The notes under the pieces: generated by a model | What the model was told of the DNA's origin: nothing | The model's input: the letters and a program-made list of their open reading frames with translations, nothing else | The model's database searches: none | Translations under genes and position numbers: made by a program | In this document: positions 867-63,872 of the stretch, one piece after another | Position numbering within the stretch: the first letter of the stretch is position 1 | How the letters are laid out: the number at the start of each line of letters is the position of its first letter | From: Rhea pennata | Lineage: Eukaryota; Chordata; Aves; Rheiformes; Rheidae | Assembly (NCBI RefSeq): GCF_028389875.1 | Contig: NC_084673.1 | Span: forward strand, 15,599,501-15,663,500 | Length of the DNA: 64,000 nt | Direction: 5' to 3'

Positions 867-948
867 TTATGCAGAAGTTCGAGCTGAAAGAAGGCGAGAT
901 CTTGGCCTTGAAGAGTCATCAATTGAACTGGCATCCTCCTCTTTAAAG
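867..948 (+). CDS. PASD1: CLOCK-like exon A (post-PAS linker)
   Basis: Acceptor AAG after a long T run, donor AAG|GTACCG. The first base completes a split codon, then residues 1-27 begin [23 protein letters not shown] has the almost identical [17 protein letters not shown] directly after the PAS-B/PAC region, so this exon fixes both family and position in the protein. It ends on a codon boundary. Confidence 0.9.
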
Positions 949-3900
949 GTACCGTGGGCCTTCTCAGTTAAATGAATAGGCTTTTGGCCCACACAGAATC
1001 ATTGCTTGTTAATCTTAGGAAAATACCTTCTCTCTCCCTCCAAGCCATCTATTGGGTTACAACTCCAACAGACCCTGAGAATTTTTAATGCTACATGGCT
1101 GTAAACTGCCCCTTCTTGTTTCAGGCATAAATAGGCAAATTGCAAATTCAGGAGTCGCACTGCTGCTGTTCTGCTTTATCAGATCTTCCTGAGACCTTTA
1201 CTCAAATGATAACTGAAGCAAGCTCGGTTCAGAAGGCGAATAATAAAGCTGGAGCTGGAGCATAAGTTGATGCCGTTATCACCATTCCTCAGCCGCAGCG
1301 AATCTGAATGCAGAGCAGCACGGCAGGGAGCACAGCCCTCTTCTGCTAATGCTGGCTCACGGGTGGTGATGGGGCAGTGCCTGGCAGGGAAGGGGAAACG
1401 ATTCTTATTCGAGGTCTCTTTCCAGCACTGGGCAGGATCCTACCCAGAGCAGGACTGAGATTAAAGCACTAATTGCCATGGCTTGAATCAGTCTGGCATC
1501 CCAACACGCCTGCTCAATTAACAGGGTCATTTCGATTACATTTAAGCTCTTCTTCTCAATAGTTTACAAATAAGACCAGTAATCAAAGTGATTTTAAGTG
1601 GATTGTTGGGTAATTATCATTCCATTAGCCTTATTGCTCTTCAGATATTATTTTACAGAAGCCCTTTGGAGGGAAGAGCAGGGGAAGCTGTCCCAAAGAC
1701 CTTTCTGCACTCGAGCAAAGGCCACTTTGCAAACAGCTGCTTCTATCTTACTACAGCACAGTTCCTTCTGTGTCTTCCTTCCCTCCTCTGTCGATAGCCG
1801 AGATATTTTTCTACAGACATTAAGGTGCATCTGTCAGTGTAAGGTGTTGGTGGCTGGAGGAGAGGCAGAGGGAGCAATTGGTTCATCTGCTGGAGGGGAA
1901 CAGGAAGCTGCGGAGCTGCCAGGGAGGCATGTGGAGGGTGACACCACGGCCAGTGTGGTCACCCATGCCTGGGAGGTGGAAAGTCTCCCCAAAGAAACAG
2001 GGCAGAAGGCAACTAATTATAACCGCGCATTTCCGTTCGCACGCAGCTCCGCGGGTGCCAGCGGGGAGGAGCAAGCAGTGCGGCAGCGCAGGGCGCAGTC
2101 CCCGCGCACTGCCTGTCGCGCCGGCAGCGAAACCTCTCGCCCCATCGCGCGGGCGGACAAGCGTGTGCTCGGGGAGCCCGGGGAGCTGCTGCCGCCGCCG
2201 GCGACTGCCGCGCGGCGAGCTCGGATGCCGAGCGGGGCTCTCGCGTGCCCGGCTCGGGGCACCCGGGGCTGCGGGTCCCCGTCCCGCGGGCTGGCGGTGG
2301 GAACGCGCGCCGGCAGCCCAGGGCCGAGGTGAACCTGGGGATGATCCCGAGGACCCCGTCTGCACCCGGACACGCTGCGCTTCGGCCGGCGGTAGTGCAC
2401 CGGGTGGCTGCTGCAGCCTTCGGTGCTGTTACGCTGCAGTGGGGCCCTCTGAGAACCCGATCTCAGCCTTTTTCCCCCGAAACCGTGCAGTCAGAGAGGG
2501 GAGTGAAGCAGGAGGTCCCCTCCGATGCTGCCTTGTCCTGCTAATAGTGTCGCTGCTTGTGCTTCGCCCTCACAGAGCCACGGCAGCTACCTGGACGTGC
2601 GGCAGTGCGGGAAGAGCCAGGAGCCGAGCCGAGAGGGAGTGTCGCTCTCGTCCCACAGCTCCCGGCGCTCCTCGCACACGGCGCTCTCCGACTCGGCGTG
2701 TAGGTGTCGGCGCCGCCCGGGGCCGCGCGGGGGGCCGTGAGGAGCGGGGCTCGGGGCACAGCAGCCTGCCAGCCCGCAGGAGCTCGGCTGGGAGCTTTCC
2801 AGCGGCTCCGCGTGGCTCTTTGCTGTGGCTCAGCTGATGGAAAGTGCCTTGCAAAGCTGGAGTAATCTGGTGTTTATTGGAGCCCACGGCATGTGCGGTG
2901 TGGGGATCCAGCTCAGCCCGAGCTGACTCCTGCGTAATTCCCATCTTTAGGAAATTATTGCTGCAGATGTGTTGGTGAGGACCACCAACAGCCTTTGGCT
3001 GTGAGCAGCAGCAGCTGCTGCGCATTGCCTATGCAGAGAGTTCAGGCTTAGCCAGGGTAAGCGGGCATGGGTTTGATACGGCCTCTGATTGCTGCTGTAT
3101 CACAATAAACCTTCCTTTTTCCAGCCACATCGTCAATGCGGCACACAGACACCAGCACTCCCACCAGGCCGTCAGTGCCAATGGGTCAATCAGAGAAGGC
3201 AGCTTTGCGCCTGGCATCAAGTGGAAGCACTCAGGTAGGAGGCCCTACAAACCTCCCTGACAGATATCATAAAGAAATGAGCTGTCAAAAGCCACTTCAC
3301 AGCAATGAGCCTTGCAGGCCTACATCCCCCCGTCAGCTGGGTGCACAGAGCCCTCAGAGAAGTCTGATCCCATCCCATGATCCCATCCCATCCCTCTATG
3401 CTGGCCTTCAGGGTTGCTGAAGTTTCCCAGGGCTGTGAAGGAACTGCCTGCTCTCAGCGCTGGTGGAGCGGTTGGGCAGAGGTTGCATGGCTGCCCCTTG
3501 TCTTCTGGAAGTCAGTTCACGCCTCCAGGTCATGTGCATCCTCATACCACAAGCCCAGTTTTCTCAGGGCTTGTACACATGAAATGAATTTCATCCAGGA
3601 TGTTCAAATGATGTTCAAACTGAGGATTTAGAGTTAGCAGGCAGGCATGCCAGAGGTTAAATTCTCTCTTTAGACACATCCTCAAACCTCCATGTGGAGT
3701 TCATCAGTGATGTCTGTTTGGCTAATATGATTTGATACAACACCAATGAGCAAGTCTTCTGGCATTGTACAGTAGAAGTGCTGTGGACCTAAAATAAGGT
3801 AAAGTTTTCATTTCTAGGCCATAGCAACTCCTCAAGCCCCTGTTGACCACCTCAGTCAGCATCCTGTGGCTCAGCCGGCAGTTCCCTCTCAGCAAGCTGT

Positions 3901-6900
3901 GATGGTACGTGTTTTATTTGTGTTAAACGCGCTCATATGTCCTGTCCACTGGGCAGACTTAGTGGCTGCACTCCACTTTGTTGCTGAACGGGGGATTGAA
4001 GAGGCTTGTGCAGGCTGTGCAGGGCTATTCTGGCCATGAAGGTAGTGCAGAATGTCCGCTGGAGCACGTCACTCAGGCGTGCCTTTGGGTGAGAGCCATT
4101 AAACACACGTAGGAGTAACAGGTACTAGGTTAGTGATGATTGAGGTGAGAAGCACGTCTCTAGAAAGCTCCTGTGCTCTGTGCAATGCATTAGCGCTCTC
4201 TGCCTTTGTCTCACCCTTAGGACTAGCTCTAGGCATTACAACCAGCTCTAGACAGGAGATGACGCGTTTGCCTTGCTCCAGGAGCAGTGCAGGGGCTGTG
4301 ATGGGATTTCAGGCAATCACAGTATGGATCTTGTTTTGTTTCCTGTTCTTGGGAGGAGCAGTCTACCTCGTGCTGATAATTTCATTCTCTCCGTGCTGGT
4401 GTCTCTACATTGATTGGCATACCTTGGGGAGAACGAACTCTCCATCCTTCACACCTGTCCATGTGCCAGGGAGGGAGCAATGGTCTCTGGCTGCCCTTGC
4501 CAATCCAACTCACCACATGAGGCCAAGGTGGCTCCCAGGGACAACTGGAAAAGATGAAGTGTTCAATGCCCTTTTAGTTTCTCTCTCTGCAATGGAGATT
4601 TTCTTACAGTGAGATTCTTACTACCACTTACTCAGCAAGAGATAGAGCAGGTAGAACAACAAATGACCAGTCTAAAAGAGTATGTAGATTCATCCAGGCT
4701 GTTAGGGCCTGCTGAAGATTCAGCTCTGAATTATTAGTGACTGACTCTAAGATCTGGTAGAGGAAAGTGGTATCACAGAGGGATTGAGATAGGCAAGGGG
4801 GGAAAAAAGCTGGAGCTAGTACATCATAACTAGTCACTAAATCATAACTACATAGTGAAGTCTCATGCTCATAGGGTCATGTAGTAAATAAACATCCAGT
4901 ATCTGAGTGCCCAGAACATAACCAAGGGATTGAAGACAGCCGACTTGGGATGTTAAGGATAGGTCCCAGGGTGGGATTACAATCCAGCTTAAGCCTGGCT
5001 GTTGGGAAATACGACCAACAGCAGCACTGGACCTCCAGGCTGGAGACCTTGCAGTGGTTAAAATTCAAAATGTCTGCTGCAAAATGTAGGAGGTCCAAAA
5101 TCAGCACAGTATCATGTTTAAGAAGGAGGGGAATCACATGCACAGATGCTGCATCTAAGCAGAAGTATAGCAGAAGGCGATCTGGAGCGAACCACAGCGT
5201 GTGAGCTGCCATTCTGGCAATATAGTAGCACTTTGGGTTAACTAAGCAACTTGCATTTTTTTGTCAGTGTCATCTTTTCTATGTCAAAAGCTGTTTCTTA
5301 GGTAATAATGTTTCAGGAAGCTGCCTGCACAGGCACCATCATTTTTCTGAAGCCAGCACCATCACAAATTTGCGCAGCAGCGCTGGTCCCGCCTGTGACC
5401 TGTTCTCTGTGCTCCACAGCCAGTGTACCACTTCCCCGCGCAGCTGGGGATGATGCACCAGCTGAAAGAGCAGCTGGAGGAGAGGACTCGCATACTGCAA
5501 GCTGACATCAAGACGCAGCAAGAGGAGCTGCACGTCATCAAGGAGCAGCTCCAGCTAGTGCAGGACTCCAACCTGCAGGTGCGCAGCCGCCTGTGGGTGC
5601 CTGGTGCTCACCTCTCTGCTCTCCGGGGACCCACAGACCCTTTGCTTTGCCTTTTGAGCACTCATCAGTAACAAGATTGTCTGCAGCAAAAGTATTTAGA
5701 AATGTGCTCTGGTTAGATTGGTAGTACAGTGTCTCAGATGTGTGAGTGGCTGGAAAGGTATCCCAGAGAGAGGAAGCATCAGGATCTCTCTAAGTGTTGA
5801 ATCAGTAATTTTCCTGATTTGGAAAAAAAAAAATCCTGAAGAAGTGATCAAAATAATCAAAAGCACCCTCTGCAGGAACTGCTCCAAGGTTTAATGGCTG
5901 ATTAACCTTGCTGCATCCCTAGTCCATTCCCAGATCCCTAGTCCCATTCCCAGATCCTTTGTACCACTTCTATGAATGGGGTGGGCATAACGGGGCTGGA
6001 GCGCCCCTGGCTCTGCGTAAATATTCGGGCACAAGCCCAAATATTTGGTTCCTGTTATCCACCGTTCACTTTGCTGCTGGACTCAGCGTGGCTGCTGCTG
6101 CTGCACTGTAAACCCCCGTAGCTCGTGGCTGCCCGTGCAAGCCGTGGGGACGGGCTGGGGATGTCTCTTGGGACACACTGGAGGTGAGAGCGGTGGGTGT
6201 GAAGGAAAGGAGACCACAAACAGTTGCACACACACGACTGGCCGTGTCCGGGGGCAGTGAGAGACTGCCTGATAGCATTGCACTCACAGTACCACTTGCT
6301 TGATGCCACTGTGTCAGAAGCCTCAGAAAACCCAATTTTTAGTAGCAAAACGGAAGTACCAGCTAGCGGCAGTAGTGTAATAACTGCTGGGTCAGCTGGA
6401 AGGGTTCCTCCCCAGCCGCGAGGGCAGCGCTGCCCCGAGGACGGGCTGCAGAGGCCCTGCCAGAGCTGGTGCTGGCACCACCGGGCTGCTCACAGCAGAG
6501 CGGGGAGGCCAGGGGACGGCGTGGCTGCGCTCTGCCCGGGGCCAGCCAGCGCAGCGGGAGCAGTCCCTTCGCTCAGGCGAAGGAATTCACTCCCCGGCGT
6601 CGGCAGGCCACCAGCTCCGAGCGACGCTCGCTTTCCCCAGCCAGGCCACCCCCGAGCTAGGCGAGCAGAGCTGAGACGTTCCCCACCTCGTCACCCTGGG
6701 AGCTGCTTTGTTAGATGAGGGGGATGCAGAGCACGGGGATCGTTTCGTTCTGCGCTAGCGGTGTTATTGAGCAGAGCTTGCTGTTAGTTAGTCGAGCAGG
6801 TCGTTAAAACAAGAAACCAGTGTATAAACTGCAACAACTCCTGTATCTCTTTTTTCTTAAAGATGTTGATGCAGCAACCGATACCCTTAGTTTTTAACAA

Positions 6901-9220
6901 CGTGCCGCACCAGAGTCCAAGAAGGCCGTCGCAGCAGCAGCAGCAGCCTGAGACAACCAGGCAAAGCACAGCCAAGAAGTTGCAGCAGCAAGGCCTTACT
7001 GGGACAAAACACTACTGTGGCCCTCACTTACCGTCCCCACGCCAATTCCTTAGGGAACCTGGTGGCCCGTCCTCCCAGGTTGCTAGCTACCGCTTTATCT
7101 TCATGCTTGTTTTCTGGCTTTCTAAATAACTACGTGTCAGCTCCTAGGGATAAAACTGATGCGTAGGAGAGTGTCCCCTTGCTGGTTCGGTGTTACACCT
7201 AGGCTGAAGGGAGCCCTTGGTACCTGTACCTCCCTCTGTGGTCCCTCTTCTCTCTCGCTTGTGCATGTTTTAGTCTCTAAATGGCATTAAAAGATATGAA
7301 GAGGAAATTGCAAGCGATGTCAATCCCGTGTCAAAAAAAAAAAAAAAAAGAAAAGAAAAAGAAAAAAAAAGAGGCCTAAAAGCATTAAATCACTGCAGAC
7401 CAATGAAAGCATTTCTCCTAACTTCAGTAGAACTGTGTAGGAGAACGGTTTGGTCTTCTGTCTCATTTCCGTTTTCAGTTACACCAGAATGCATCTTTCG
7501 TAATCAGTGAGAGTTGTTATAACCTAATTATTTAGAGAACTAGGCGTAATTTTAAAAGTTTCTGTCTTTTTCTATCTGGGAATGCCTGGAAGCTAGCTTT
7601 AAAAAACAACAAGTTTATCCTCACTAGACCTAAGTCCAATACATAGATGGCCACATCTCCTTGGGAAAAAGCTTAGGTAACCAAAATTGAAAAAAGATTG
7701 AAAATGACTGCTTTAAAGGAAGCATTAGAAACATGTAAGGTTTGGATTTGCAGCCCTTCTCCCTCGCGCCTGTCCTCGCCCTTCCCCTGCGGTTTGGCCC
7801 GAGACCGTCCGCTTCCCCCGCGGGGCATCCCGGCGCTGCGGTGCGCGGGCGGCGGCGCGGAGGGCTTGTCGGCCCCGGTGGCAGATGCCCCGGCGTTGTC
7901 ACTTTGCTCAGGGAGAGCATGCCACCACTAACTGTCCTTTTGCCAACTGCATGCTTAAAGGCCTTATTTTAGCCTTCTGGTAGGAAATTAAAAAAAAATG
8001 TCGTGTGTGTCTGTGTCTGCGTTCAGGTGCAGCAGCAGCACCTGATGAGAGGGAGCCAGGCCCAGCAAACGTGTCTGCCGGGACAGATGAGCATTTCAGT
8101 GCCCCTCTACAACAACCCCGTGGTGTTTCCGCAAGCGCATCCCGTTACCGTGCCTGCGCAGATGCCGACTGAAGTCAGTGACAGGCAGCAGCAGGCTGAC
8201 TACAGCCAGGACAGGAGCCTGAGGTACGCGTCCAGCCCGCGACAGCCCCGGGTGCCGCGGCAGGGACGGTCCCTCCGCAGAGCCGGGGCTCTGGAATGGG
8301 TTACGGAGGGGCGAGATCTGGAGCCCGTCTCCGGCAGACTCTGTGTGGTTTAACAAATGCTGTCCCAATGTTCTTTCTTACACTTTCTTTTCCTCCGCTT
8401 GGCAGATTCGTCGCAGAGCAGCAGATCTTGCCTCCCCCAGTACAGATGCAGCCGATTACCGGCAGCACAGTCCGGCCTCCAGCCCCGTCGCCCATTTTCT
8501 CCCCGTCGCTGATGATCCCACACACCAGTTTCACTTCCCACCAGACCAGCACCCCAGTTCATCTCCATCAGTGGCCACAACAACAGGTTCAGCAACACCG
8601 TCTCTACCTTCAGGTAATGAAGGGGAGGAACCAGCAGGTCTAAGTCTTTGGGATCCTGGCCCCAGGGTGGTGGAGGGACAAGGCTGCTCTGCAGCTTCTT
8701 GAGCTGTTGCCCGAAGCTCCTTCCCGCAGAGGATGGAAGTTGCACATCCAGCAGAATTTGCTGGGCTTCCAAGAAGCATATTTTAGCTCTCCATCGCTGC
8801 TGGAGTCTTCTGCTGGGCTCCACAGAGGGTCTGTCAGTACAGGCAGGGCTTGGTTCACCTTTGTGCTCGCCAGGCGGCAGCTGTCATGCTGGTAACACCA
8901 GCATCCCCAGCTGCATGTCTGCAACCTGTAGCCTTGCCGGGTAGTGATGACCTTAGGGCTGTGGCTCACGCCCCTTGCTCAGGTCCTCAGCATCAGCCCC
9001 CACAGCAAGAGGGGCTGATCTGACCCGTGCCTCCCACCCCGCCCTGCAGATGCACAGCCCCGAGCCGGTGCCGGCAGGGCCGACCCAGCGCGTTTTCCAG
9101 CCGTCTCACGCCGCGCAGCAGAGCCCCTTGGGCTACTTCGTGCACCCGCAGCAGCCGAGCCGCCCCGCGCAGGGCCAGCCCTGCAGCCTGCCCGACGTGC
9201 CGGAGATGCAGCTGCCGTGA
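867..9220 (+). CDS. PASD1: Third CLOCK/NPAS2-family paralogue, C-terminal part; probable sauropsid orthologue of PASD1
   Basis: Nine spliced exons encode the C-terminal 450 residues of a CLOCK-type bHLH-PAS transcription factor. These proteins heterodimerise with BMAL in the nucleus and act at E-boxes. Exons are 867-948, 2576-2699, 3125-3234, 3818-3904, 5420-5578, 6863-7078, 8027-8223, 8406-8613 and 9050-9220. All phases join and all introns are GT-AG. Numbering from the first whole visible codon, residues 1-14 ([14 protein letters not shown]) are nearly identical to CLOCK just after PAS-B. A serine-rich block ([10 protein letters not shown]) follows near 57-66. A coiled coil matching CLOCK exon 19 is at 135-187, and a Gln/Pro-rich activation-like tail follows with no long polyQ. 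The mixture of CLOCK-like and NPAS2-like residues, the neighbours TBC1D8B and RNF128, and PASD1-like motifs ([19 protein letters not shown]) argue for a third paralogue. CLOCK or NPAS2 themselves are less likely. The family is certain; the orthology is inferred. Confidence 0.62.
2020..2760. promoter_or_regulatory. Intragenic CpG-rich island around exon B
   Basis: CpG dinucleotides and G+C rise sharply at about 2,030 and fall after about 2,760, in otherwise AT-rich intron. The island covers exon B. Intragenic islands can be alternative promoters or simply GC-biased exonic sequence; nothing here decides between these. Open frames through it are a by-product of high GC. Confidence 0.45.
2576..2699 (+). 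CDS. PASD1: CLOCK-like exon B (Ser-rich segment)
   Basis: Acceptor CCTCACAG|AGC, donor CGT|GTAGGT. Encodes residues 28-68 and the first base of Ser69. It contains [15 protein letters not shown], matching the conserved SRSSxKSSHTAxSD block of CLOCK and NPAS2, a phosphorylation-rich region in CLOCK. The exon lies inside a CpG-rich patch. A donor four bases downstream (G2703|GTGTCG) is possible, but its phase does not fit the next exon. Confidence 0.85.
3125..3234 (+). CDS. PASD1: CLOCK-like exon C
   Basis: Acceptor TTTTTCCAG|CC, donor CAG|GTAGGA. Two bases complete Ser69; the exon then runs to residue 105. [14 protein letters not shown] aligns with CLOCK around PTDTSTPPRQ and with the NPAS2 STPTK segment. 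The phase joins exons B and D without a stop. Confidence 0.8.
3818..3904 (+). CDS. PASD1: CLOCK-like exon D
   Basis: Acceptor TTTCATTTCTAG|GCC, donor ATG|GTACGT. Exactly 29 codons, phase 0 at both ends (residues 106-134), rich in Ala, Pro, Gln and Val. It occupies the poorly conserved linker before the CLOCK exon-19 coiled coil. Support comes mainly from splice sites, phase and composition. Confidence 0.7.
5420..5578 (+). CDS. PASD1: CLOCK-like exon E, counterpart of CLOCK exon 19
   Basis: Acceptor CTCCACAG|CCA, donor CTGCAG|GTGCGC. Codes 53 residues (135-187), phase 0 at both ends; mouse Clock exon 19 codes 51 residues, as I remember. The motifs [19 protein letters not shown] and [12 protein letters not shown] align end to end with that exon. 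This is the coiled coil removed in Clock-delta19 and, in CLOCK, the segment needed for binding [13 protein letters not shown] is closer to PASD1 than to the LKDQLEQRT of CLOCK. Confidence 0.93.
6863..7078 (+). CDS. PASD1: CLOCK-like exon F (Gln-rich)
   Basis: Acceptor TTTTTTCTTAAAG|ATG, 72 codons, residues 188-259. It starts MLMQQP, where CLOCK and NPAS2 both start this exon with MFLQQ. A run of five glutamines (CAG) lies near residues 211-215. The end [12 protein letters not shown] aligns with NPAS2 HLLRES-ISTQ. The donor CAG|GTTGCT is weak, but it is the only site that keeps phase and homology. Confidence 0.82.
7750..7920. other. Short CpG-rich patch in the intron before exon G
   Basis: About 170 bases of GC-rich, CpG-rich sequence inside the intron 7079-8026, flanked by AT-rich DNA. 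The open frames across it have no recognisable product and no convincing splice context. A similar GC-rich patch occurs at about 6,390-6,690 in the intron before exon F. Confidence 0.35.
8027..8223 (+). CDS. PASD1: CLOCK-like exon G
   Basis: Acceptor TGCGTTCAG|GTG, donor AG|GTACGC, residues 260-324 plus two bases of Arg325. [17 protein letters not shown] is shared in pattern with CLOCK (TAPLYNTMVISQP). It is closer still to PASD1 (SVPL-NHPV-F-QAQP) as I recall that protein. The exon ends SQDRSLR, equivalent to CLOCK TQDRQIR, which also ends an exon. Confidence 0.88.
8406..8613 (+). CDS. PASD1: CLOCK-like exon H
   Basis: Acceptor CGCTTGGCAG|A, donor CTTCAG|GTAATG. One base completes Arg325, then residues 326-394. 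Rich in Pro, Gln, His, Ser and Thr with hydrophobic patches ([11 protein letters not shown]). It occupies the place of the CLOCK segment after DRQIRF. It has only short Gln runs instead of the long polyglutamine of CLOCK. Confidence 0.85.
9050..9220 (+). CDS. PASD1: CLOCK-like terminal coding exon
   Basis: Acceptor CGCCCTGCAG|ATG; 56 codons (residues 395-450) and a TGA at 9218-9220. The end [17 protein letters not shown] resembles NPAS2 near its C-terminus (TLGYPQPPPAQPQP) as I remember it. The exon is GC-rich and contains many CpG. Confidence 0.85.
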   Translation: MHSPEPVPAGPTQRVFQPSHAAQQSPLGYFVHPQQPSRPAQGQPCSLPDVPEMQLP

Positions 9221-9984
9221 GCGCGGGGCCGGGCCCGCGGCAGGACCTCGGCCGCCGCAGCCCGAGGCGGAGAGGCCCCGCAGCAGGGCCGTGTCCATGA
9301 GCGTTTCCCCGCGGGCAGCCCTGCCGGCGCGCGGGGGGGGCCTCGGCCGCGAGCAGCTCCGGCTCCCGGCTCGGTCCGTCCTCCGGATTGGAAGTCCTAG
9401 AAGTCGCTGGAGGCGAGCCGGGGCCGCCTGGGGAGGGAGGGGGCCGCGTCGGGGGCCACCACGCGCCGGCGGTCGGCAGGACCCCGCCGAGGCGCGTGTG
9501 CATAGCTCACTGCGGTGTCGGGGGGCCAGCGTGGATTTTGGTGGGTTTTTTTTTTTTTTTCCTTTTCTCTATACCTCAAGCCCACAGGTTTTGTTTTCCA
9601 GCCGATTGGATAATGCTGCTAATTCACATAACACCACTTTTGCCTGAATTTCTTACTCTTGTTATACCAGCTCACAGCACAACCAGTAAGATATTTGTCC
9701 TGGTTCATTTTGGTTAACAAGTGCAGATGATAAATTTATGTGGTTCTGACTCCCTGTAGCCGATTTTTTTTTCAGGTTACAGACAAAGATTCCTTGCTCT
9801 TACGGCAGCGTTATTTTGTTTCAAGTGGGTGTTGCTGTACATGTTTCTTTACACCTAAAAACAAACAAAAAAACCCGTATGACAGCAAACTTTCTGGTTT
9901 TGCTAGGTCATGTTTCAATCTGACAAACCTAAAACTGCTTAAACTCGCAGTGCCGCAAGGGACGTCACAAGCCCGGAGGTCAGC

Positions 9985-9990
9985 AATAAA
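9985..9990 (+). terminator. PASD1: Proximal poly(A) signal AATAAA
   Basis: Canonical AATAAA 765 bases after the stop codon, followed by a T-rich stretch. A plausible end for a short transcript. Confidence 0.45.
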
Positions 9991-10379
9991 TTGTATTTTT
10001 GTAAATTGTCACTTTTTAACTATATATGTTTATATTTATGAATTGAAAAAAAAATGTTTATTCCTCAGTGGGTATATAGTAAAGTGTCCCTACTGTTCGT
10101 GTCTTTCCAAAGGAAAAATGAAAATGTACATTTTCGAGGCGGGGTTGGTAACCGAGTGCTGCTTTGGGCACTGTTAGAGCTCAGAGGTAGGCGCTGGTTT
10201 ATGCCATTACTAGACGCTTTCCAAGCTAACGGTCGGTCAGGAACAAATGCAGCTGGGGGCATGGTCCAGCCAGTCAGAGCAAAGTTTAGGGACAGGCTAG
10301 TGTTTAACCGCTAGCTAATCTAAGCAAAAGTCTTTTTATTTATTTTTTGCTTGCTTGCTTTTTTTTTGCGTTTGTTTGC

Positions 10380-10841
10380 TTTTCGCCCCGCGCAAGCTGC
10401 TGTTTTCCAGCTCCTTGCTGCACGGCGCCGGGGCGCTCGGCGCGGGGCTGCGGGGCGCCGCGGGGCCGCCCGGCCTTGGGGCTTGGCGCTGGTGGGACCG
10501 GGGGGGCACAGGAGGGCGGTGAGGGCCCCACCGGCGCCCACCTCCCGGTGACGGCGGGTCAGAGCGGCCGGAGGGGCTGAACCGAGGCCCGGTGCAACCC
10601 TCGTCCAGTCGAGCCCGCTCCAGCCCGGCCTCGGGGAAGGGCCGCGGCAGCTCGTGCTCGGGGGCAGCGCGCCGGCCGGCGCCAGCCCTGCGCCTGCGAC
10701 CGGCAGCCTTCGCCGTAACGTGTATGTGTATAAATATATATATAGTTTTATATATATATATTTATATGTATATAGTCACAGTGTGTGTATGTGTGTGTGT
10801 CTATATAGAGAGACACACACATATTGTATACACACATATAC

Positions 10842-10874
<33 letters not shown>

Positions 10875-11510
10875 CTCACACACATATATATATATAGGTT
10901 GGCTGCGGTTTTGTTTTTTAAAGCGCTATTACGTTTAGGATCCTCGCTGCCCAGATACCGAGGGGGTCTGGCTGGGGGGAGGGTGGGGGTGTTGCGTTGG
11001 GGTGTTTCCCGGGCTTGGCGCGTGCCAGCGGGCAGGAGGGGAGGCGCACGGGGAGGCGCACGGCGGGCGGGCGCGCGCGTTTCAGAGGCTGGGGCGGGGA
11101 AGGGGCTCTCTGGGGAGGGGTGGGCTGCTTTCCGAACAGGGCCAGGCAGGTAGCCGAGGCAGGGTGGCTTTGCTGGCGTTGCTACAGCCCTCGAAGCCTG
11201 GCTGCGGTCGGGTTCGGGGTCTTTCTTTGGGGGACGGGGGGGTTGCGCAGCGGGGCGGGGGCGCGCAGAGCCCCTCCGACGGCCGCGCGGGGCTGCACAG
11301 CGGCGGCCGCCCCGGCACGCGGCCTCGCTGCAGGGAGCGCGGGCGGGCAACGGGGATGTTTACACGTTAGATTGGCCTTGCCACAGCCGAGGCACTATAA
11401 ACCACGCACTTTATCCTGTGCCCTACGCGCTGCCCCGGCGCGTTCCCGCCGTCTGCCCCGGCCCCGCTCCTCGGCCGGGCGCTGGAGGGAAAAATCCTTT
11501 TTCGGGGGCC
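10380..11510. promoter_or_regulatory. CpG island downstream of the CLOCK-like coding region
   Basis: Two blocks of very high G+C and CpG density (about 10,385-10,715 and 10,960-11,510) flank a TA/CA microsatellite. Near the right edge are an inverted CCAAT (ATTGG, 11371-11375) and a TATAAA (11396-11401) 25 bases apart. Just after come pyrimidine-rich starts. This could be a promoter for a transcript running rightward, or GC-rich UTR. No protein-coding first exon is recognisable downstream. Confidence 0.4.
10725..10900. repeat. Compound TA/TG/CA microsatellite
   Basis: Alternating TA, TG and CA runs. Around 10,789-10,822 a TG run is followed after a short loop by a complementary CA run, so a stem of about 12 base pairs can form. 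Long TA runs lie on both sides. Confidence 0.9.
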
Positions 11511-17499: not shown

Positions 17500-55080
<37,581 letters not shown>

Positions 55081-61327: not shown

Positions 61328-63872
61328 CTATCCAGAACAAGAAAAAACAAGTTAAGGCAAGCTTCACTACCTTAAAGAAAACCCACATTTTTTCTTCTCA
61401 AGCCTACTGCAGTGGTCTCTTCACAACACTTCCTAAATAGTGGGAATCCAAAGCTATGCCTCAACTACCCCTCTTCCACTGGCCTTCATTAGTTTGTGAG
61501 CCTATTAGCTGTTATTTCTAGATGTGTCCACTAGGCTTTGGAATTCACTCCTCACTAGGGTTGAGCAAACAGACTGTACATCAAGTGACAGAAGGCAGTG
61601 AAGGCTACAAGATCCAGCTATAAGGAGATTGAGAAATCTCATATGACTTTAAGGGCTACTGAAGACAGGCATCTGGAATAACTCTCAGAGACTAGTTTCA
61701 GGATACAGAGTGATTCAGAGAGAAATTCTTTCCCCACAGACTAACTTTGTCAGGCTGACATTAATGCTTGTTTTTGCCACTCAGAGTGAGAATACATATG
61801 AGGGCCTGTGAAATCTAAATAGTTCAGATTCACTTAATTTACTTCTAGGAATGCAAACTAACTTTGATGTTTTGCTTAAAGGAAATACCCTCTCTTCTAG
61901 TGAGGTGCCTAAGCAGGAGCACTCCTATATACACTTTATTTGCTGGAGCAAGATGTCCCACAGGTGGCAGCAAATCCCATGCTTTCTAGGGATGGCTCCA
62001 GTGGGAAATAAAAGCTGACAACCAGAATGCATCCTTTTCACCTCTGAAAGCTTCCCCACTTACTCTTCTTTCCAAGTCCATTCTACAATTCAGCAGAGAA
62101 CCACACTAGTTTTGTTCTGTTTACCTAGAGTCTTTACACTTTCAAAATCAACTGCAACACTGAGCACATCTTGACAAAAATAAGCAGTAGGAAAAAATTT
62201 TTCAGTACATGTGTTCTTGTTTAAAAAGATAAGATATTCGAAAAAGCTAGTAGTCTTTCTCAGTAAAATTTCTCTGTGAAAGTGTTCAAAGATGACTCAG
62301 CCTCTGTAAAATCTGAAATTTGGTATGAAGTATTTGCAATTTCTATTCATCATCTATACAAGAGCAAAACTGACTCCCTAGAAGCTTTCTGTAAGTAACT
62401 GCTCAAAGCAGACAGATCTAGTGGCAAGGCAGCACCTGCTTATTCACAATGTAATTTCCAAAGAGATGAGGTGTGGGACATCTTCAAAAAAAAAAAAAAA
62501 AAAAAAAAAAAAGGCCCTTTGGCCTTTAAATAGCCTCAGATTTTCAGTTCAGTTTTTACTCAAGTTTAGGTTGTGCTTTAATAAAGAATAACTAGCAAGT
62601 ATAAATGCCAACTGCTTAAAAAACAGGAGGTTAAGATTACTCTGAAAAACAGCAAGCTCAAGGTGTTCAAGCACTATTAGATGTTACTCAGAAAGAAAAA
62701 GAAAAAACCCCAATTCATAGCATAACCAATGAAAGTGCAATGCAACCTAACAAGGCAGGTGAGGTGAAGTAATATACTCACTTTCTGATGGTGCATGTTC
62801 TTCCAGAACAGATTCATCTGCTCCTTGTACAGAAGCATATCCAGATGATGCAGTTTCACTATTACTATCCTCTTCATTAACTGAAGTAACATTTGATGTT
62901 TCATTGGATACTGTGGCTTGCACAGACTCTGCCCCATCTTCTATATCCGCCTTTACGAAAGGGAAGCAAAAATGGTTAAGTTACAACTTTGTGGAAAGAT
63001 GCATCTTTCAAAGAGGCCAATGCTTTGCAGAGACTGGAGTCTAATGGACTTCAGGCCAGAAAGAGGTTTAAAATTGAAAAAGCTCTACTGTAAACCTCCA
63101 GCCTAATAAGTGAAAGCCAGTTACTGCCTAGTTAGGGTGGGAGGTTCAGATGCAGCTTCTGTATTTTTCAGCCAGTTCTTCCCTTTTTTCTGCCCAATAT
63201 CAGGAAGAGAGATTCCTCCTTCCACTAAGTGCAGTTTTCTACCCTCTAGAAGATCTCTGCCATACATTTCAGCTGGTCCAGGCAGTGGCAGGCAATGGCA
63301 ACAGTATCTTTCTTCAGTATCTGCCACCATGACAAGTAACAGAACATACATCAGGCATTTCTTATGTTTCCCTACTACGAAGTTGCATGTGTTAACCTAT
63401 CCTCTGCTCAAGGACTCTGAGTATTTATAACTGAACAAAGGCTGGTTTCAAGTACAGTATTAATTACCAAAGCCTGCCTAAACTTCAAGAAACACCTCTA
63501 ATTGCAAATAGAGCAATTCTTCCGTCATACATAACAACCAATTTAGATTGCCACTTTGCCCAATGCTTTAGACAGATATCAACTCAGACCACATCAGCTG
63601 CAGGATTCACTAACAGGGGTATGCTCTACCATTAGTCATGTAGCATCCCACAGTTGACATGCAAGGTTGGTGCTTATTTGCATTCTAGAGGCAGCATAAA
63701 AGAGCTCAAATGCTGTCAACTACACCAGCAAACACTGCTAATGGCATTTGTCACTAGGAAAGAACACTGACTTACCTCAATGCCCAAAGCTTTGAGTATG
63801 TCACATTTGCACATGGGGCATGTCCTGTGTTCCAGAAGCCAGGGATCAATACAGTTCTTGTGGAAGAGATGG
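61209..63872 (-). CDS. RNF128: RNF128 (GRAIL) E3 ubiquitin ligase, C-terminal part
   Basis: The three last coding exons (63776-63872, 62782-62950, 61209-61327) give the C-terminal 128 or so residues. RNF128/GRAIL is a single-pass endosomal membrane protein with a PA domain and a RING-H2 finger. It ubiquitinates targets such as CD40L and CD3 subunits and limits T-cell activation. Visible here is the second half of the [25 protein letters not shown], with the two zinc-binding His and the last three Cys. The tail follows: [33 protein letters not shown] and [11 protein letters not shown]. This tail is diagnostic for RNF128; RNF149 has a different one. The PA, membrane and first RING exons lie to the right, outside the window. 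TBC1D8B follows in the same direction, as on human Xq22.3. Confidence 0.93.
62486..62512 (+). repeat. Poly(A) tract in RNF128 last intron
   Basis: About 27 A, followed by a short inverted repeat (AAAGGCC / GGCCTTT). Confidence 0.85.
62782..62950 (-). CDS. RNF128: RNF128 penultimate coding exon
   Basis: Acceptor TCGTAAAG|GCG, donor GAAA|GTGAGT. Acidic, Ser/Glu-rich tail ([20 protein letters not shown], then [17 protein letters not shown]). Composition is PEST-like. Confidence 0.93.
63776..63872 (-). CDS. RNF128: RNF128 exon with second half of the RING-H2 finger
   Basis: Acceptor TCCCACCAG|C, donor ATTGAG|GTAAGT. The first base completes an Asn codon (CNH in the family). It encodes H-x2-H-x2-C-x13-C-x2-C of the C3H2C3 RING and then [11 protein letters not shown]. 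Confidence 0.94.

What the first reader, a model, noticed from the sequence alone, without database searches (positions are those of the whole stretch)
867..9220. A third CLOCK-family gene, probably the non-degenerate sauropsid orthologue of mammalian PASD1
The encoded tail is clearly of the CLOCK/NPAS2 family but matches neither cleanly. It combines a CLOCK-like start ([13 protein letters not shown]), an NPAS2-like ERTRILQA and a CLOCK-like PLYN/QDR segment. As I remember human PASD1, a CLOCK-derived, X-linked testis/cancer repressor of the clock, two motifs fit it best: LKEQLEERT and SVPL-N-PV-F-QA-P. PASD1 looks like a degenerate orphan in mammals. A well-kept CLOCK-like copy in an X-homologous block of a bird would explain its origin and imply a third CLOCK-type BMAL partner in sauropsids.
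Basis: partly seen in the sequence, partly recalled or inferred. Interest (0 to 1): 0.86.

Follow-up and report, generated by a model that had tools for sequence, protein, structure and literature searches.

The report
Third CLOCK gene, kept in birds
Besides CLOCK and NPAS2, this bird carries a third complete CLOCK-type gene, which gene order and sequence suggest is the intact counterpart of the stripped-down human clock repressor PASD1 and a sibling dating back to the early vertebrate genome doublings.

Summary
Window 867-9220 carries exons 11-19 of a CLOCK-family gene; extended into the assembly it has 19 coding exons and 804 aa, with bHLH, PAS-A, PAS-B, CLOCK-exon-19-like coiled coil and Q-rich tail. 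CLOCK and NPAS2 lie elsewhere in the same genome (NPAS2 exon 17 unresolved); no fourth CLOCK-type gene was found. Intron phases match CLOCK, 18 of 18. Each of the three genes lies within a few Mb of a CNG-channel gene and a GABA-receptor-type cluster; TBC1D8/9 and AFF relatives share their chromosomes, the signature of the early (2R) duplications: a third sibling of CLOCK and NPAS2, not a CLOCK copy. PASD1 is already named in chicken, king penguin and rattlesnake papers, so the gene is not unknown; I found no paper describing its full CLOCK-like architecture or 2R origin. Action as a third BMAL partner is inferred.

The parts
867..948 (+). coding exon 11 ([19 protein letters not shown]...), just after PAS-B
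   Evidence: tblastn to CLOCK
2576..2699 (+). coding exon 12, serine-rich stretch ([17 protein letters not shown]) matching the CLOCK/NPAS2 serine cluster
3125..3234 (+). coding exon 13 (TDTSTPTRP..., compare CLOCK TDTSTPPRQ)
3818..3904 (+). coding exon 14
   Evidence: splice phase as in CLOCK
5420..5578 (+). coding exon 15, coiled coil equivalent to CLOCK exon 19 / PASD1 coiled coil ([23 protein letters not shown])
6863..7078 (+). coding exon 16, Q-rich
8027..8223 (+). coding exon 17 ([24 protein letters not shown]...DYSQDRSLR), closest to PASD1
8406..8613 (+). coding exon 18
9050..9220 (+). coding exon 19 with stop codon TGA
9221..10010 (+). 3' untranslated region; the only AATAAA/ATTAAA in 9221-11500 is at 9985
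   Evidence: end inferred
27584..40138 (-). neighbouring TBC1D8/9-family gene (two GRAM exons, RabGAP-TBC exons) facing the CLOCK-type gene; these are the exons with significant Pfam matches, the gene itself is longer

Best explanation
The gene is the third vertebrate CLOCK-type bHLH-PAS transcription factor, born with CLOCK and NPAS2 in the two early vertebrate genome duplications, and it is orthologous to mammalian PASD1. In this bird it has kept the whole CLOCK design. The expected mechanism: the protein pairs with BMAL through bHLH, PAS-A and PAS-B, binds E-boxes through an unchanged basic region, and is held in check by CRY through the unchanged PAS-B HI loop (HQWNS). The coiled-coil exon recruits co-regulators, as CLOCK exon 19 does. 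Mammals kept on the X a fast-evolving remnant without most of the HLH and without PAS-B, which can still engage CLOCK:BMAL but not bind DNA, hence a repressor. Shown here: the intact gene, its two siblings, exon phases, gene neighbourhood, domain content. Inferred: BMAL pairing, E-box binding, CRY control, activator role, and the order of losses in mammals.
For: 804-aa intact frame in 19 GT-AG exons; HLH and PAS domains; PAS-B 92.5% and 94.2% identical to this bird's CLOCK and NPAS2 over 120 aa, basic region RNKSEKKRRDQF and HQWNS loop identical. Three CLOCK-type loci found in the genome (only the best candidates are scored). Intron phases equal to CLOCK, 18 of 18, and exons 3-10 of equal length in all three genes. 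Paralogon: GABA-receptor-type clusters on C4, C1, C11 and C14; CNG-channel genes 1.8, 1.5 and 3.7 Mb from CLOCK, NPAS2 and the third gene (9 of 2,000,000 random triples do as well, threshold taken from the data); TBC1D8/9 members on the same four chromosomes, with NPAS2 and the third gene each facing one, stop codon to TBC exon 23 and 20 kb; AFF members on the same four. PASD1 joins it 100/100 on three blocks, 100/99 on PAS-A plus coiled coil. Chicken PASD1 lies about 100 kb from GPR50 and was quantified by qPCR in diencephalon (PMC9911055); here Mel1c/GPR50 lies 240 kb from the gene. Rattlesnake PASD1 is named as a major transcription factor marking venom-gland cell clusters (PMC10289209), so sauropsid expression is not germline-only.
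Against: The all-column tree gives PASD1 plus this gene only 74/68, with a PASD1 end branch of 6 changes per column, and rejects neither CLOCK (p-AU 0.153) nor NPAS2 (0.068) as PASD1's partner. Six or seven sequences only: no second bird, reptile, fish or mammal PASD1 could be added. With fly CLK as root the third gene falls beside CLOCK (86/88, 83/88), whereas its TBC neighbour pairs it with NPAS2, so the branching order among the three is open. The HLH has diverged (72-76%, against 82% between CLOCK and NPAS2) with a two-residue loop insert, so dimer strength or DNA affinity may be altered. No expression, binding or reporter data for this protein were obtained.
Confidence: 0.78

Rival explanations
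1. It is the third 2R sibling, but works as a brake: the altered HLH pairs with BMAL yet binds DNA weakly, so the bird protein already damps CLOCK:BMAL output, and mammalian PASD1 merely sharpened an old repressor role.
For: Measured against the CLOCK-NPAS2 distance, the HLH has moved more than the other domains (72-76% against 82%; two-residue loop insert). The one studied member, mammalian PASD1, is described as suppressing circadian amplitude (PMC8836288, passage).
Against: Basic region unchanged and PAS-B over 92% identical to both activators; the Q-rich tail and the coiled coil are kept.
Confidence: 0.3
2. It is a lineage-specific duplicate of CLOCK or NPAS2 in birds or reptiles, unrelated to PASD1; the PASD1 motifs are convergence.
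For: The all-column tree does not reject a branch that holds this gene with CLOCK alone (p-AU 0.142) or NPAS2 alone (0.078).
Against: PAS-A is 63-65% identical to CLOCK and NPAS2 alike, while CLOCK keeps 93% and NPAS2 82% between bird and human, so the split is older than the bird-mammal split. The parallel gene blocks call for a block duplication. PASD1 affinity on alignable blocks.
Confidence: 0.04
3. The gene is NPAS2 or CLOCK itself seen out of context.
For: The tail mixes CLOCK-like and NPAS2-like motifs.
Against: Both genes are present elsewhere in the genome, CLOCK from residue 16 of the human protein to its stop, NPAS2 likewise save for exon 17.
Confidence: 0.01

Closest known systems
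CLOCK
   Same: Domain order, 18 of 18 intron phases, eight exon lengths, basic region, PAS-B 92.5% (own genome), coiled coil, Q-rich tail
   Different: PAS-A 63%, HLH 76% with two-residue loop insert, coiled coil 63%; other chromosome
NPAS2
   Same: PAS-B 94.2% (own genome), N-terminal MDEDEKDRAKR identical to recalled human NPAS2, TBC1D8/9-type gene facing it downstream
   Different: PAS-A 65%, HLH 72%; in exon 17, PASD1 shares 9 residues with the bird gene alone and none with NPAS2 alone
PASD1 (human sequence recalled; gene named in chicken PMC9911055, king penguin PMC13111634, rattlesnake PMC10289209)
   Same: Highest identity to human PASD1 over three alignable blocks (100 of 250, against 82 of 250 human CLOCK and 73 of 250 human NPAS2), LKEQLEERT and SVPL-N-PV-F-QA motifs; chicken gene near GPR50 as here
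   Different: Human PASD1 lacks nearly all of the HLH and PAS-B and has a very long branch; the bird gene keeps both domains
GPR50/Mel1c (a parallel, not a homologue)
   Same: Neighbour at 240 kb; a paper says the mammalian GPR50 form of MTNR1C has lost response to melatonin (PMC7541902, passages)
   Different: A receptor gene, unrelated in sequence

Membership tests
CLOCK-type bHLH-PAS family | Intact bHLH with CLOCK-type basic region | tested here: met
   Pfam HLH 39.1 bits, cut-off 20.7; RNKSEKKRRDQF identical
CLOCK-type bHLH-PAS family | PAS-A and PAS-B of CLOCK type | tested here: met
CLOCK-type bHLH-PAS family | Exon-19-type coiled coil and Q-rich C-terminus | tested here: met
CLOCK-type bHLH-PAS family | Shared exon-intron design | tested here: met
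   18 of 18 intron phases equal to CLOCK; exons 3-10 equal in length in all three genes
CLOCK-type bHLH-PAS family | Pairs with BMAL and activates from E-boxes | not testable with these tools
   no binding or reporter data
2R sibling (ohnolog) of CLOCK and NPAS2 | Lies in a paralogous chromosome block with the same other gene families | tested here: met
   on C4 the TBC and AFF members are 22 and 45 Mb from CLOCK
2R sibling (ohnolog) of CLOCK and NPAS2 | Branches outside both the CLOCK and the NPAS2 clade | tested here: inconclusive
   best trees place it outside both (CLOCK pair 98/100 and 100/100, NPAS2 pair 91/96 and 80/80), but with few rows, and p-AU for rival branches is 0.07-0.15
PASD1 orthologue | Groups with human PASD1 | tested here: met
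   100/100, p-AU 0.002 against rivals; 100/99, p-AU 0.014 without exon 17; all-column tree 74/68, not decisive; PASD1 letters recalled
PASD1 orthologue | Same neighbourhood as the gene named PASD1 | tested here: met
   for chicken only: about 100 kb from GPR50 there, 240 kb here; no chicken letters seen; human Xq28 neighbours recalled
Mammalian PASD1 protein type (truncated repressor) | No full HLH and no PAS-B | tested here: not met
   bird gene keeps both
Mammalian PASD1 protein type (truncated repressor) | Expression limited to testis and tumours | not testable with these tools
   papers name PASD1 in chicken diencephalon and rattlesnake venom gland

The most novel reading that the evidence does not exclude
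Jawed vertebrates inherited three, not two, CLOCK-type activators from 2R. The third ran as a full BMAL partner in the ancestor and still does in birds and reptiles, in somatic tissues (chicken diencephalon, rattlesnake venom gland), near the Mel1c melatonin receptor gene. Therian mammals lost it as an activator and reused the wreck on the X as the testis repressor PASD1, in step with the change of neighbouring Mel1c into GPR50. The teleost gene called npas2 might in truth be this third member: PMC3161366 speaks of two NPAS2 lineages, a teleost and a sarcopterygian one (passage), and PMC2364759 (2004) names zebrafish NPAS2 as the protein nearest to human PASD1 after the mouse homologue. The teleost point is untested here.
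Probability: 0.45. Interest if true: 0.82.

Novelty: new member of a known kind. Interest (0 to 1): 0.62.

Why it matters
Papers seen here name CLOCK and NPAS2 as the two 2R paralogs known in human and mouse (PMC6723592, PMC3161366; passages). A third one, complete in a bird, means that work that measures or removes only CLOCK and NPAS2 in birds may miss a redundant or opposing partner. It also offers an origin for the orphan cancer/testis clock repressor PASD1: decay of an old full-length clock factor, not a recent offshoot of CLOCK. This can be tested directly in chicken.

Tried and rejected
All-column tree with PASD1 (772 columns): PASD1's end branch is 6 changes per column and the placement is weak; kept and reported. 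Ideas rejected: CLOCK or NPAS2 itself (both found elsewhere), a processed copy (19 exons with introns), a pseudogene (no stop or frameshift in the model), a recent duplicate (about equidistant from both siblings).

Weak spots. This bird's NPAS2 exon 17 could not be modelled: the automatic join was wrong there. Before the tree I removed nine residues of that join and prefixed ten N-terminal residues seen at position 2887 of the NPAS2 stretch without fixing that splice; bNPAS2 is absent from the exon-17 block. CLOCK was modelled from residue 16 of the human protein. The 804-aa start is placed by analogy with NPAS2; the frame stays open for 16 codons upstream, so a longer N-terminus is possible. 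The random-triple control places genes uniformly and takes its 3.7 Mb threshold from the data. Single-gene names for CNGA1-3, TBC1D8/8B/9/9B, AFF1-4 and the GABA-A label for the clusters are recalled; the calls show Pfam family and position.

Papers. Michael et al. 2015 (PMC4458219) is not held; what I say of it is recalled or from other papers. Passages only were seen of PMC13111634, PMC6723592, PMC2364759, PMC9911055, PMC11884735, PMC1890293, PMC7541902, PMC3161366, PMC8836288, PMC10289209 and PMC6065191 (the last names PASD10 = NPAS4, not PASD1); of PMC9456351 and PMC10468136 only reference-list lines; a find in PMC7575087 gave nothing. All others were seen only as search listings. The statement that no paper describes the full architecture or 2R origin rests on searches (5 of 5 listed; 3 of 3; 2 of 2; 40 of 110; 9 of 9; 15 of 1,176; 10 of 16; 1 of 1, not opened; 8 of 8) and 69 (16 of 16) of an open-licence library; most listed papers were not opened, and subscription papers and database entries were not seen. 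Structure prediction was not run.
Full report
What was checked. The finding covers window 867-9220. Reading the DNA and aligning recalled human CLOCK, NPAS2 and PASD1 to 42.5 kb of genome that starts 31.5 kb left of the window gave a continuous series of exons. Splice sites were fixed by GT-AG borders and reading frame (a one-base slip in exon 17 was corrected). The result is 19 coding exons, 2,415 bases with stop, 804 aa, spanning C11:15581538-15608720 of the assembly. The start codon is placed by analogy with NPAS2; the frame is open for 16 codons further upstream, so a longer N-terminus as in CLOCK is possible. The only poly(A) signal in 9221-11500 lies 765 bases after the stop.

Domains. 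Pfam reports HLH (10-60), PAS (87-152), PAS_11 (251-354) and PAS_3 (264-350) over their cut-offs. The nearest solved chains to residues 1-552 are CLOCK (8osj, 4f3l). Within this genome PAS-B is 92.5% identical to CLOCK and 94.2% to NPAS2, PAS-A 63.0% and 65.2%, bHLH 76% and 72%, coiled coil 62.8% for both. CLOCK and NPAS2 of the same bird compared with each other give 90.0, 64.6, 82.0 and 67.4%. So the third gene is about as far from each as they are from one another: a little nearer in PAS-B, further in the HLH, where it also carries a two-residue insert in the loop.

Is it CLOCK or NPAS2? A protein search of the whole assembly (54 matches at E up to 10, best candidates only) finds three loci with CLOCK-type exons: C11 (this gene), C4:29.815-29.832 Mb and C1:147.868-147.894 Mb. 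The best match elsewhere is E 6e-6 (C5) to a single exon. The C4 gene is CLOCK and the C1 gene NPAS2 by alignment with the recalled human proteins; the models span C4:29803144-29832219 and C1:147867820-147913337. The third gene and CLOCK agree in 18 of 18 intron phases, and exons 3-10 have equal lengths in all three genes. NPAS2 exon 17 stayed unresolved.

Origin. If the three genes are products of the early vertebrate genome duplications, other families should run in parallel. They do. CNG-channel genes (CLZ domain, 4 of 13 listed matches over the cut-off) lie at C1:146.34, C4:28.07, C11:11.90 and C1:216.62 Mb, that is 1.5, 1.8 and 3.7 Mb from NPAS2, CLOCK and the third gene; 9 of 2,000,000 random triples matched this (a rough model). 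Clusters of ligand-gated channel genes with the layout of GABA-A receptor clusters lie at C4:27.3-27.8, C1:145.3-145.8, C11:12.0-12.2 and C14:8.2-8.7 Mb, among 97 matches over the genome (the GABA-A label is mine). The TBC gene downstream in the window has close relatives at C1:147.936, C4:51.57 and C14:16.10 Mb (75, 74, 71% identity; three further matches at 42-46%). NPAS2 and the third gene each face such a gene, 23 and 20 kb from stop codon to the matched TBC exon. AFF-family exons lie at C11:14.65, C1:147.18, C4:74.60 and C14:20.63 Mb (16 of 16 matches). On C4 the TBC and AFF members are 22 and 45 Mb from CLOCK, so linkage there is loose. No CLOCK-type gene was found on C14. Names of single human members are recalled; the calls show family and position.

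Branching order. With fly CLK as root the third gene falls beside CLOCK (86/88 with PASD1 in the set, 83/88 without), while the facing TBC gene pairs it with NPAS2. Neither settles which sibling is nearest.

PASD1. Against the bird protein it aligns over PAS-A, the coiled coil and exon 17, has a stub of the basic region (EKRRDKVN), no HLH and no PAS-B. With all columns (772) the best tree joins it to the bird gene at 74/68, and the AU test rejects neither CLOCK (0.153) nor NPAS2 (0.068) as partner. On three alignable blocks (269 columns) support is 100/100 and both alternatives fall (p-AU 0.002). Identity is 100 of 250 to the bird gene, 82 of 250 to human CLOCK, 77 of 250 to bird CLOCK, 73 of 250 to human NPAS2 and 69 of 205 to bird NPAS2. 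Residues shared with only one of the three number 19 for the bird gene, 7 for CLOCK and 5 for NPAS2; in PAS-A alone 8, 6 and 5. Leaving out exon 17, which had drawn attention beforehand, gives 100/99 and p-AU 0.014. Only six or seven sequences were available, so this is good but not final evidence.

What is known. Chicken PASD1 is listed at chr4:17,394,750-17,501,799, with GPR50 at 17,602,861-17,634,184, in an RNA-seq table and was quantified by qPCR in diencephalon (PMC9911055, passages). King penguin data name PASD1 (PMC13111634, passage), and it is listed among the major transcription factors marking rattlesnake venom-gland cell clusters (PMC10289209, passage). In this assembly the Mel1c/GPR50 gene lies at C11:15.34 Mb, 240 kb from the third gene's start codon. 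So annotations already hold a PASD1 gene in sauropsids; that it is this gene rests on the GPR50 neighbourhood and the PASD1 affinity, since no chicken letters were seen. Papers whose passages I saw name two 2R CLOCK paralogs in human and mouse. I found none that describes a full-length third member; the limits of that search are given under Tried and rejected.

How it probably works. DNA contact region and PAS-B, including the HQWNS loop that in CLOCK meets CRY (recalled from CLOCK structures), are unchanged. The simplest reading is a third BMAL partner at E-boxes under CRY control, with a co-regulator-binding coiled coil. In mammals the lineage lost most of the HLH and PAS-B, leaving a protein that can touch the CLOCK:BMAL complex but not bind DNA. 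The steps from structure to function are inference. The altered HLH leaves room for a damping role.

Verdict.

Noticed in passing
window 27584-40138 and about 54000-55000, minus strand: TBC1D8/9-family gene (two GRAM exons, RabGAP-TBC exons) with a GC 0.75, CpG-rich stretch at 54-55 kb as a possible promoter; recalled as X-linked TBC1D8B in human.
   Followed up: partly
window 62750-63396, minus strand: Exon-like frames that resemble the C-terminus of RNF128 by recall only; Pfam gave nothing over a cut-off.
   Followed up: no
C11:15582926-15583080 (third gene exon 2, left of window): Two-residue insert in the HLH loop (GHGHPLKMDK), absent from CLOCK and NPAS2 of bird and (recalled) human.
   Followed up: partly
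L047-L049, C1:147909300-147909600 roughly: This bird's NPAS2 exon 17 appears GC-rich and diverged; not resolved.
   Followed up: no
C11:15340509-15341117: Mel1c/GPR50 melatonin receptor gene 240 kb from the third CLOCK gene: two neighbouring timing genes, both changed in therian mammals.
   Followed up: partly
C14:8.2-20.6 Mb: Fourth block of the quartet carries GABA-receptor-type, TBC1D8/9 and AFF members but no CLOCK-type gene was found there: the fourth sibling seems lost.
   Followed up: partly
PMC10289209: PASD1 is named as a transcription-factor marker of rattlesnake venom-gland cell clusters, an unexpected somatic site for a gene known in humans from testis.
   Followed up: no
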